From Bacteroidales bacterium (GTDB lineage: Bacteria; Bacteroidota; Bacteroidia; Bacteroidales; P3): a DNA stretch of 32,213 nt. Position numbers and translations under genes: made by a program. Below are positions 3,816-27,155 of this stretch, piece after piece (positions within the stretch are counted from its first letter, which is position 1; each line of letters opens with the position of its first letter). The notes below the pieces were generated by a model. The model saw nothing but the letters and a program-made list of their open reading frames with translations, made no database searches and was not told the DNA's origin. Where the stretch lies: assembly GCA_017509045.1 (NCBI GenBank), contig JAFWQP010000149.1, forward strand, positions 1-32,213, given 5' to 3'.

Positions 3816-3889
3816 GGCGGGATAGCTCAGCTGGTTAGAGCGCTGGATTCATAACCCGGAGGTCATCAGTTCAAGTCTGATTCCCGCTA
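3816..3889 (+). tRNA. tRNA-Met (anticodon CAT)
   Basis: The 74-nt sequence folds into a cloverleaf. Acceptor arm GGCGGGA pairs with TCCCGCT, with one G-T pair at the end. The D arm contains AGCTCAG..TTAGAGC. The anticodon loop TTCATAA carries CAT. The T arm is ATCAG/CTGAT around a TTCAAGT loop. The CCA end is not encoded. A CAT anticodon can belong to elongator Met, initiator Met or lysidine-modified Ile2. The overall sequence looks most like elongator Met, but Ile2 cannot be excluded by eye. The top pair of the anticodon stem (A-C) is unpaired. Confidence 0.9.
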
Positions 3890-25793: not shown

Positions 25794-26624
25794 ATGAAAG
25801 ACCAATTCGTCATTGCCTATCTTGCCGACCTCAGTATGACCAACGAAGTGGTCAGCCATGCCTGTTTCCTTGCCCGTATGCTTAACAAAGGGCTCATCCT
25901 CCTCTACGTCGAAGACTCCCACCACCACAACCCCACCGTTGCCCAAGCCACCCCCACACTCCTTCAAATCGAGGCTGCACACCCCGACGTACACCCCGCA
26001 CACGTAGCTATGAAAGGCAATACACGCGAAGTCATCGACGCTCTCCCCACCATGCTCAATGGGGTTATCGCTGTAGCTGGTGTCAACTCCGCCGCCCGTC
26101 GTGGCTCACCCACCCATCCCCTTCAAGTGTTGCACCTCTTTGGTGGCTGCAAGATTGCCTACCTCACCGTTCAGAGCCTTCTTTCCGACCCCACCGTCTA
26201 CACCCATGTAGGCTATGGCATCGACTTCCGCAAGGAGAGCAAGGAAAAACTCATTTGGGCAAGCTATTTCAGCCGCTTCAACCATAGCCACCTCACCATG
26301 CTCCACTTCAACTATACCGACGAAGGGTTGCACACCAAATGGCACAACAATGTTCGTTTCATGAACAAATTCTTCAACGGTCTTGGGGTTACCTACAACC
26401 AACAATCCGTCAGCGGTCACGCCCTCTTCCCCGAAACACTAGTCTGCGACACCGCCGCCCACATCGGCTGCGGCCTCCTCATCTCCGTCACCACCGATAC
26501 CCGCGACCTCGACATCATCGAATGGTTTGCCGGCACCCAGGAACGCCGCACCATCCGCAACCCCCACCACCTTCCCGTCCTCTACATCAATCCCCGCAAC
26601 GACATCTACGTCCTCTGCGACTAA
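25794..26624 (+). CDS. Degenerate universal-stress-like protein
   Basis: 276-residue cytoplasmic protein starting MKDQFVIAYLADLS, 4 nt after the stop of the T9SS gene, so translation is probably coupled. The frame is open further upstream (from 25275), but that part is the T9SS gene read out of frame. Length and two-part layout match tandem Usp proteins. The end (FAGTQERRT..HHLPVLYINP) lines up with the end of the other Usp in this window (LLGTYAQQML..SHRPILSIRP). The nucleotide-binding pattern G-2X-G-9X-G is missing from both halves, so ATP binding is doubtful. The family call is tentative and rests on fold-like features and the parallel position in the other secretion cluster. Confidence 0.7.
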   Translation: MKDQFVIAYLADLSMTNEVVSHACFLARMLNKGLILLYVEDSHHHNPTVAQATPTLLQIEAAHPDVHPAHVAMKGNTREVIDALPTMLNGVIAVAGVNSAARRGSPTHPLQVLHLFGGCKIAYLTVQSLLSDPTVYTHVGYGIDFRKESKEKLIWASYFSRFNHSHLTMLHFNYTDEGLHTKWHNNVRFMNKFFNGLGVTYNQQSVSGHALFPETLVCDTAAHIGCGLLISVTTDTRDLDIIEWFAGTQERRTIRNPHHLPVLYINPRNDIYVLCD

Positions 26625-26639
26625 ACCCCTATCCTTCAA

Positions 26640-26991
26640 CCCAAATCGGTCATTAGGGTTTATGGCAGATTAGCATTTGTTATGTTCCATGACGTTACTT
26701 GGTCTCGGCATAGAAAGCGAGCTTTCTCTGCTCTAGTCTTTCGTAATGACTCGAGCAGATTGGCCTCATCGCTGGCGAAGGTGAGAAAGGCATCCAGTGA
26801 ATGCCTTTCAGCTACGGCGAGACAGGGATGTGGACAAGATGCCGAACGTTACCAAAGGCGAGTGCAGAGCAAGCTTGCTTGCTATGCCGAGCCCAAGTAA
26901 CGTCATGGAACATAAAGAAATGCTGATATGGCATAAACAGACCTTACAAAGAGAGAAAGGATATAAAAGGCGGTCTAATGACCGATTTGGG
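26640..26991. repeat. Long imperfect palindromic element (giant hairpin)
   Basis: The outer arms are a perfect 17-bp inverted repeat (26640-26656 with 26975-26991). Further in, 23 bp pair perfectly (26680-26702 with 26893-26915), then CTCGGCATAG (26704-26713 with 26882-26891), then about 45 less exact bases. The tip is a 9-bp hairpin GAAAGGCAT/ATGCCTTTC (26785-26809). The right arm carries about 33 extra bases near 26940-26972. Secondary small hairpins sit in the left arm (GAAAGC/GCTTTC at 26712-26725; CTGCTC/GAGCAG at about 26728-26758). Short open frames across it show no recognisable protein. It could be a nonautonomous mobile palindrome or a structured RNA; no obvious target duplication was found. 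Confidence 0.85.
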
Positions 26992-27118
26992 ATTAATAGA
27001 ACCCACCATGAGTTGAATGGGGTATTTACATGACGAACCTGGTGGGGAATGGGAGATGGGATAGAAGAAGCGGACTAATTGATAGGTAATTACAAAACAA
27101 AAGGTAGATTTGCATTAG

Positions 27119-27146
27119 AAAACTGACAAATTGTCAGTTTTTTTTT
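27119..27146 (+). terminator. Rho-independent terminator upstream of dnaG
   Basis: AAAACTGAC pairs with GTCAGTTTT over an AAATT loop, followed by an unbroken T run to 27146. It would end transcripts coming from the T9SS/Usp cluster or the hairpin element. Its T run directly abuts the dnaG -7 box. Between the palindromic element and this stem (26992-27118) I see nothing recognisable. Confidence 0.85.
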
Positions 27147-27147
27147 G

Positions 27148-27155
27148 TACTTTTG
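27148..27155 (+). promoter_or_regulatory. Promoter -7 box of dnaG
   Basis: TACTTTTG matches TAnnTTTG and is identical to the -7 box of the tRNA promoter in this window. No TTTG is found 19 bp upstream, where the terminator stem lies. The ATG begins only 9 bases after the box, so the transcript would have a leader of a few bases or none. Confidence 0.6.

What the first reader, a model, noticed from the sequence alone, without database searches (positions are those of the whole stretch)
26640..26991. A ~350-bp intergenic element that is one giant imperfect hairpin
Nested inverted repeats (17 bp outer, 23 bp middle, 10 bp inner, 9-bp tip) line up continuously, so the whole element can fold on itself, with smaller hairpins embedded in the arms and an extra ~33 bases in the right arm. 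It carries no transposase and no credible ORF. It could be a mobile palindromic repeat (MITE-like), a structured noncoding RNA, or a replication/segregation signal near dnaG. The near-perfect 23-bp arm in an otherwise drifting palindrome suggests selection or recent spread.
Basis: seen in the sequence. Interest (0 to 1): 0.7.

Follow-up and report, generated by a model that had tools for sequence, protein, structure and literature searches.

The report
Mobile hairpin element with conserved fold
The giant hairpin is one of dozens of copies of a small gene-less jumping element whose folded shape and arm lengths stay nearly the same in relatives that carry different jumping ends, which suggests that the fold itself has a so far unexplained job.

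Summary
The hairpin is real (17-, 23-, 10-, 9-bp arms exactly as listed; folding z -14.3) and repetitive: its terminal repeat has 57+57 hits in the host genome (control 3+3). Of 40 complete copies, 32 have exact 5-bp TSDs (shuffled mean 5.3, maximum 14); one nested copy has a paralogous empty site; a truncated IS1380-family transposase ORF follows an identical TIR. So it is a MITE. The window copy is an atypical, probably recombinant 352-bp form with a second hairpin repeat in both arms and mismatched TSDs.

The typical copy is a 193-nt hairpin, arms 78 and 111. Pairs covary strongly (17 of 19, 0/500 shuffles). Covariance models find the core in 22 of 393 order genomes (12 families) and only within the order in a 395-genome phylum sample. 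In some other families the ends are IS5-type with 3-bp TNA TSDs, yet lengths are 192-194 with arms 78-79/110-111. The same folded element thus seems to ride on two unrelated transposase families. One strand always folded better; whether RNA or single-stranded DNA is selected is open (RNA favoured).

The parts
26635..26639 (+). left 5-bp flank TTCAA (a TSD sequence of the family, but not matched on the right)
26640..26657 (+). left terminal inverted repeat CCCAAATCGGTCATTAGG, basal stem
26658..26680 (+). 5' arm of the basic element (GTTTATGGCAGATTAGCATTTGT)
26681..26746 (+). copy 1 of the ~66-nt REP-like hairpin module lying in the 5' arm
26746..26852 (+). conserved folded core (model R3 match, 31.1 bits, E 9e-5; ends overlap the two modules): GAG-CA-GA-UU .. 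AA-GA-UGCC
   Evidence: conservation
26785..26809 (+). alternative apical hairpin (GAAAGGCATCCAGTGAATGCCTTTC) that replaces the usual AGCGGGCT tip in this and several other copies
26849..26915 (+). copy 2 of the REP-like hairpin module, inverted, in the 3' arm
26916..26938 (+). 3' arm of the basic element
26975..26991 (-). right terminal inverted repeat
26992..26996 (+). right 5-bp flank ATTAA, unlike the left one

Best explanation
The element is a non-autonomous transposon (MITE). Shown: multicopy, 18-bp TIRs, 5-bp TSDs, a nested insertion with a paralogous empty site, and a (truncated) IS1380-family transposase gene behind the same TIR in the same genome. Inferred: that kind of transposase mobilises it in trans. 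The basic unit is a 193-nt hairpin whose base is the TIR stem. The window copy is probably a recombinant between a copy with a hairpin module in its 5' arm and one with the module in its 3' arm; this gave the 352-nt double-arm form with mismatched TSDs and may have removed a gene still present next to dnaG in a sister species (inferred). The fold is under selection (supported): stems covary, purine mismatches and the CGRG tip are largely kept, and arm lengths are conserved across elements with two unrelated kinds of ends. Most likely the selected molecule is an RNA copy of the + strand whose structure helps the element persist or spread whatever transposase moves it (inferred, about 55%); the binding partner is unknown.
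For: TIR 57+57 hits against control 3+3. Exact 5-bp TSD in 32 of 40 own-genome copies (shuffled mean 5.3, maximum 14; T2 and A4 in 32 of 32) and in 28 of 48 further copies. Nested insertion with a single-TTCAA empty site seen in paralogs. IS1380 transposase NF033539, 186.4 bits, cutoff 180, behind an exact 17/17 TIR. Covariation: A1 19 of 48 pairs and 118 cells changed on both sides against 26.6 cells shuffled, 0/500; A3 22 of 31 pairs; A5 17 of 19 pairs, score 0.522 against 0.171, 0/500, slid controls <=0.159. Core in 22 of 393 order genomes, own included. Geometry: 193/78/111 (58 copies), 192/78/110 (12 copies), 194/79/111 (6 copies) under IS1380-type and IS5-type ends. IS5-type ends: TNA TSD and an IS5-family transposase NF033580, 230.4 bits, in an IS with a similar TIR. 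+ strand more stable in 40/40, 48/48 read from the rows, 34/34 and 21/21.
Against: No transcription data. No consistent orientation relative to neighbouring genes (>E> 7, <E< 5; 10 and 13), so read-through mRNA function is not favoured. By eye I saw no promoter shared by the families. G-U versus A-C departures in stems are only mildly biased and not significant per pair (A1 20 vs 12 pairs, p 0.22; A5 10 vs 4, p 0.18), as are inferred changes (43:28 terminal, 13:5 internal branches, each p 0.096). The IS1380 copy is cut off at a contig end; its protein was found at E<=1e-40 in only 1 of 41 genomes, own included, and PF13701 in 2 of 59 genus genomes, so MITE-rich relatives such as G006, G017 and G021 show no such transposase in their assemblies. 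In two lineages the 3' arm is 5-11 nt shorter (G433, G427).
Confidence: 0.72

Rival explanations
1. The fold acts as DNA: the + strand, when single-stranded (lagging strand, or extruded as a cruciform), folds and brings the two TIRs together or is bound by a host or transposon protein, which helps excision or insertion.
For: No orientation bias relative to genes; TIRs form the base of the hairpin; G.T and tandem G.A are also stable in DNA (recalled); overall length and arm lengths are nearly fixed across families.
Against: The IS1380- and IS5-type transposases found are DDE enzymes believed to act on double-stranded ends, and long DNA palindromes are usually counter-selected (both recalled); a strand-specific apical loop and internal loops are not obviously needed for end pairing.
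Confidence: 0.27
2. The palindrome is only a mutational product: template switching between the arms (quasipalindrome correction) keeps the arms complementary, without function.
For: Would also give compensatory changes on both sides; palindromes are known to be corrected this way (recalled).
Against: Purine-purine mismatches (G.A, G.G, tandem G.A) and the ~32-nt arm asymmetry would be erased by correction, yet recur in distant families; a half-and-half A/B chimera (L225) has not been corrected.
Confidence: 0.1
3. A host structured RNA or chromosomal signal specific to the dnaG locus.
For: Intergenic, highly structured.
Against: Dozens of scattered copies with TSDs; the orthologous dnaG locus in G006 lacks it.
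Confidence: 0.02
4. Remnant of two inverted insertion-sequence ends (chance head-to-head IS fragments).
For: TIR shared with an IS.
Against: TIR-to-TIR units of this spacing occur in 13 of 120 genus genomes (in G074 the only match, and in G076 one of two, has another interior), with exact TSDs in 60 of 88 copies examined; the interior is conserved and, by eye, does not resemble the start of the IS.
Confidence: 0.02

Closest known systems
IS-derived MITEs of bacteria (e.g. P. gingivalis BrickBuilt/MITE464/MITE239 with IS5-family TIRs; PMC4596501, passages seen)
   Same: No transposase, TIRs shared with a resident IS, TSDs, intergenic, stem-loop folding
   Different: Here one folded interior of nearly fixed length recurs under both IS1380-type and IS5-type ends; I did not compare sequences with the P. 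gingivalis elements
BOX / RUP repeats of Streptococcus pneumoniae (PMC3049150, passages seen)
   Same: Tightly folded repeats with the TIRs paired as part of the structure; BOX is modular
   Different: Different phylum, no sequence relation tested; the find counts zero uses of compensatory and covariation in that paper's main text
Correia/NEMIS and ERIC elements (review PMC10969869, passages seen; the name NEMIS is recalled)
   Same: MITEs whose presence in transcripts affects mRNA processing or decay
   Different: Those act within read-through transcripts; here no orientation bias was seen
REP elements with GTAG/CGTC tags (PMC3733652, search listing only)
   Same: Palindromic extragenic repeats
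   Different: REPs are 20-40 bp; this is about 193 bp (window form 352 bp) with TIRs and TSDs. The arm module is REP-like in look, but its class was not tested

Membership tests
MITE | Many copies with precise terminal inverted repeats | tested here: met
MITE | Target site duplications of fixed length | tested here: met
   5 bp exact in 32 of 40 and 28 of 48; the window copy itself is mismatched
MITE | Empty sites without the element | tested here: met
   paralogous empty site for one nested copy; the window locus in G006 lacks the element but is not a clean empty site
MITE | No transposase inside; TIRs shared with an autonomous IS | tested here: met
   no ORF >=100 aa inside; exact 17-bp TIR before an IS1380 transposase ORF; the right end of that IS is not in the assembly
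MITE | Actual mobilisation by that transposase | not testable with these tools
   needs a transposition assay
IS1380-family mobilised element | 5-bp direct repeats as in IS1380 family | tested here: met
   IS1247 (IS1380) has a 5-bp DR in Table 2 of PMC3281130 (passage)
Rfam-listed structured RNA | Match to a curated covariance model | tested here: not met
   no match at E<=10 for 26600-27100; in 11 related loci only three matches at E<=1, all in flanks
Structured RNA | Compensatory base-pair changes | tested here: met
Structured RNA | Transcribed, strand-specific | not testable with these tools
   no expression data; strand-specific fold stability is only indirect
REP element (RAYT-associated) | 20-40 bp palindrome | tested here: not met
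   about 193 bp, window form 352 bp, with TIRs and TSDs; REP size from the abstract start in the listing

The most novel reading that the evidence does not exclude
A single ancient, order-wide structured nucleic-acid element, about 193 nt with nearly invariant arm lengths, that is not tied to one transposase: in different Bacteroidales families it carries IS1380-type, IS5-type or still other ends while keeping the same fold, CGRG tip and G.A internal loops, so the fold (probably an RNA bound by a host protein) is the selected, selfish principle and the TIRs are interchangeable.
Probability: 0.4. Interest if true: 0.87.

Novelty: new variant of a known kind. Interest (0 to 1): 0.7.

Why it matters
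MITEs are usually seen as passive deletion derivatives whose interior does not matter. Here the interior is the conserved part and the transposase-binding ends change. If true, it would be a bacterial counterpart of structured-RNA parasites such as Alu elements (comparison recalled), and it gives a defined set of conserved nucleotides (CGRG tip, bulged A, tandem G.A) with which to look for a binding protein or function. The covariance models could also help annotate these repeats, several of which lie at contig ends in the window's assembly.

Tried and rejected
Replication or segregation signal at dnaG: rejected, copies are scattered and the G006 ortholog lacks it. Rfam family: no match to the element. 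Read-through terminator or mRNA stabiliser acting in one orientation: no strand preference among tandem genes; only the excess of convergent over divergent neighbours stands (16 to 2; 11 to 3), from simple gene finding of my own. G-U bias as proof of RNA: first looked strong in raw cells (200 to 41), but that structure was predicted with G-U allowed; with Watson-Crick-dominated pairs only, the excess is mild and not significant per pair. Autonomous parent in viral contigs: none. Relatives elsewhere: plasmids were searched with the window element and one IS5-type element, phages with the IS5-type element only, no match; of three short patterns run on viral contigs two gave nothing and one hit a single contig, L320, which holds an element copy. 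Clean orthologous empty site at the window locus: not obtained. Literature searches whose listings showed nothing that I recognised as this element: (open-access PMC only; titles and starts of abstracts seen, and passages of PMC10969869, PMC3049150, PMC4596501 and PMC3281130).

Rows dropped before counts: one search used 61 of 88 copies (185-196 nt only); A1 used 60 distinct inner sequences; A5 used 26 of the 36 A4 matches (dropped: 5 antisense, 1 partial, 2 weak L292 rows, 2 near duplicates) plus 8 reference copies, from 11 families (my script label '12 families' is wrong). Two elements in the strand-stability counts (L082, L034) have other interiors, so their orientation is arbitrary. One search counts 34 parsed end pairs from eight genomes, of which seven look like spurious pairings of TIR-like matches; 19 are exact. 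One search measured 58 of 61 IS1380-type copies, 12 of 12 given for G377, 6 of 8 for G338/G419, 2 of 2 for G433, 1 of 1 for G427, 0 of 1 for G496. One search looked at 38 loci, several per genome. Only the top 9 candidates per genome were scored, so copy numbers are lower bounds; searches of more than 40 genomes used stricter filters, and E-values of the models are rough because calibration was short. R3 was run on the phylum sample only (and on the window), so its sensitivity across the order was not measured.

Full report
WHAT IS THERE. BLAST of 26630-27000 against the host genome gives 156 matches, counting pieces and both strands of the palindrome. I fetched and read the copies. A typical copy is 190-195 bp, begins CCCAAATCGGTCATTAGG and ends with its reverse complement; the TIR (<=3 mismatches) occurs 57 times on each strand against 3 on each for the reversed-pattern control.

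IT IS A MITE. Of 40 complete own-genome copies, 32 have exact 5-bp direct repeats of the form (T/A)TNA(A/T), with two exceptions at the outer letters, against 5.3 on average and 14 at most with shuffled flanks; of the other lengths from 3 to 9 only 4 bp gave any exact repeats, 2, no more than shuffled. Among 48 further copies, 40 from genus relatives and 8 from contigs titled Bacteroidales or Bacteroidetes MAGs, 28 have exact repeats. One copy (L048) sits inside an older copy; removing it together with one TTCAA restores a sequence that aligns through the junction with uninterrupted copies. An IS copy (L086) starts with the same 17 bp, is flanked by TTTAT on its left, and encodes a transposase (346 aa, open at the contig end) that passes the IS1380 cutoff (NF033539, 186.4 bits against 180; PF13701 E 5e-30). 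A 5-bp duplication is reported for IS1247 of the IS1380 family (PMC3281130 Table 2, passage). Against this link, that protein was found in only 1 of 41 genomes, own included, and PF13701 in 2 of 59 genus genomes, although MITE matches occur in 13 of 41; multicopy IS may be lost from such assemblies. None of the 40 copies is inside a gene predicted by my own simple gene finder, and convergent neighbours (16) outnumber divergent (2).

WHY THE WINDOW COPY IS GIANT. The 66-67-nt arms that give the 23-bp stem are copies of a second repeat, a REP-like hairpin with 49 BLAST matches in the genome, about 39 of them outside the MITE and some in tandem arrays at about 66 bp. Own-genome copies carry it in the 5' arm only (L040-L044) or the 3' arm only (L039, L049); of 88 copies the window copy alone has it symmetrically in both. 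Four other two-module copies (L032, L035, L037, L038) have the 5' module near the apex and have intact TSDs. The window copy has mismatched flanks, TTCAA and ATTAA, both of the TSD form. In sister genome G006 the same upstream gene and dnaG are separated by a further gene and no MITE. The simplest reading, an inference, is recombination between two MITEs that removed the intervening gene and joined two halves.

THE FOLD IS CONSERVED. Three sequence subfamilies in the genus (A 49, B 7, C 5 of 61 copies) share the fold. In alignment A1 (60 inner sequences), 19 of 48 pairs change on both sides, 118 cells against 26.6 shuffled, 0 of 500 shuffles reaching any measure, and slid structures score far lower. 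Mismatches in the subfamily A consensus are purine-purine on the + strand (G.A, G.G, tandem G.A/A.G) and its wobbles are G-U, none A-C (read by me). The + strand folds better than the - strand in 40 of 40, 48 of 48 (rows), 34 of 34 cores and 21 of 21 IS5-type elements. Within Watson-Crick-dominated pairs the G-U excess is mild and not significant, and so are changes placed on a tree, so this asymmetry rests mainly on conserved loops and fixed wobbles.

IT EXTENDS BEYOND ONE MITE FAMILY. Model R1 (from A1) matched 4 of 198 order genomes, three of them in other families (G027, G200, G258) and over its full length. Model R2 matched 22 of 393 order genomes in 14 of 206 genera, 12 families by my count, own genome included; the weakest by best hit, G497, lacks part of the motif. 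Model R3 in a phylum sample of 395 matched only G000 and G377, both in the order; how many of the 395 are from other orders is not printed, and the search used strict filters. The core alignment A5 (34 sequences, 11 families) has both-side changes in 17 of 19 pairs, covariation 0.522 against 0.171 shuffled. The tip loop is CGGG or CGAG in 33 of 34; an A stands at the bulge column in 26 of 34, and the two tandem positions are G.A in 24 and A.G in 20 of 34.

DIFFERENT ENDS, SAME GEOMETRY. In G377 and G338/G419 the ends are GAAACTGTTTTGAATTT or GAGCCTGTTTAAATTTT; over these and five further genomes with related ends, 19 of 34 parsed end pairs have exact 3-bp repeats (shuffled mean 9.2, maximum 16), mostly TNA. 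In G377 an IS of about 0.9 kb whose left end matches this TIR at 16 of 17 bases and whose right end at 14 of 17 encodes an IS5-family transposase (NF033580, 230.4 bits); its own flanks, TAA and TGA, are not an exact repeat. Eight of twelve G377 copies have the same folding energy, which fits recent spread. Yet total length, 5' arm and 3' arm are 192/78/110 in G377, 194/79/111 in G338/G419 and 193/78/111 in the window's family (medians). Two other lineages are shorter in the 3' arm (G433 189/79/106; G427 182/78/100). Families f81/f19 and f26 have yet other ends, whose TSDs I did not resolve.

HOW IT MAY WORK. The MITE step is well supported. That the fold is selected is supported by covariation, by persistence of mismatches that arm-to-arm correction would erase, and by the geometry under unrelated ends. 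Whether RNA or single-stranded DNA is the selected form is not decided: absence of orientation bias argues against simple read-through roles, and nothing here shows transcription. I favour RNA (about 55%) because of the strand-specific tip and purine loops.

NOVELTY. No Rfam family matches the element, and the listings of the open-access literature searches showed no description of this element or of one folded interior under IS1380- and IS5-type ends. Bacterial MITEs with folded transcripts, and possible mobilisation by several transposases, have been discussed (PMC10969869, PMC4596501; passages), so I file it as a new variant of a known kind.

Noticed in passing
own genome C102 10380-10561, C25 36663-36778, C20 10454-10637, and many single sites: A REP-like ~60-nt hairpin repeat (ACGTTGT..GAGCAGAGAGAGCTTGCTCGCTATGCCGAG..ACAACGT) occurs in about 39 places outside the MITE (of 49 matches), some in tandem arrays of ~66 bp; it has also entered the MITE at three different positions.
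   Followed up: partly
L083, L080, L078, L081 (own genome C72, C63, C37, C66): Solo TIR scars such as TTTAA-CCCAAATCGGTCATTAGGG-TTTAA (L083), as if the hairpin were deleted between the internal and external GGGTTTA repeats, perhaps by replication slippage.
   Followed up: no
window 26625-27150 versus L175 (G006): A gene (TraX-like by eye) between the upstream gene and dnaG in the sister genome is missing in the window genome, where the chimeric MITE sits; suggests a MITE-MITE deletion.
   Followed up: partly
L257, L259, L262, L264, L266 (G258): The 5 copies read (of at least 8 in that genome) all lie just upstream of a same-strand gene (pyrG-, ftsY- and ndh-like by eye); the element end contains TAATTTTG, which fits the recalled Bacteroidetes -7 box TAnnTTTG.
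   Followed up: no
L082 2730-3001, L034, G076:C100 2103-2300, G074:C49 12594-12776: The same TIRs enclose quite different interiors, some with other palindromic repeats, so the ends can carry other cargo.
   Followed up: no
L225 (G017:C39): A copy whose left half is subfamily A and right half subfamily B, with an uncompensated, weaker fold: recombination between copies.
   Followed up: no
L320 (IMGVR_UViG_3300018430_000047): One viral contig carries a copy with GAAACTGG..-type ends.
   Followed up: no
   Followed up: no
window 3816-3889: tRNA gene (Rfam RF00005, 63.8 bits).
   Followed up: no
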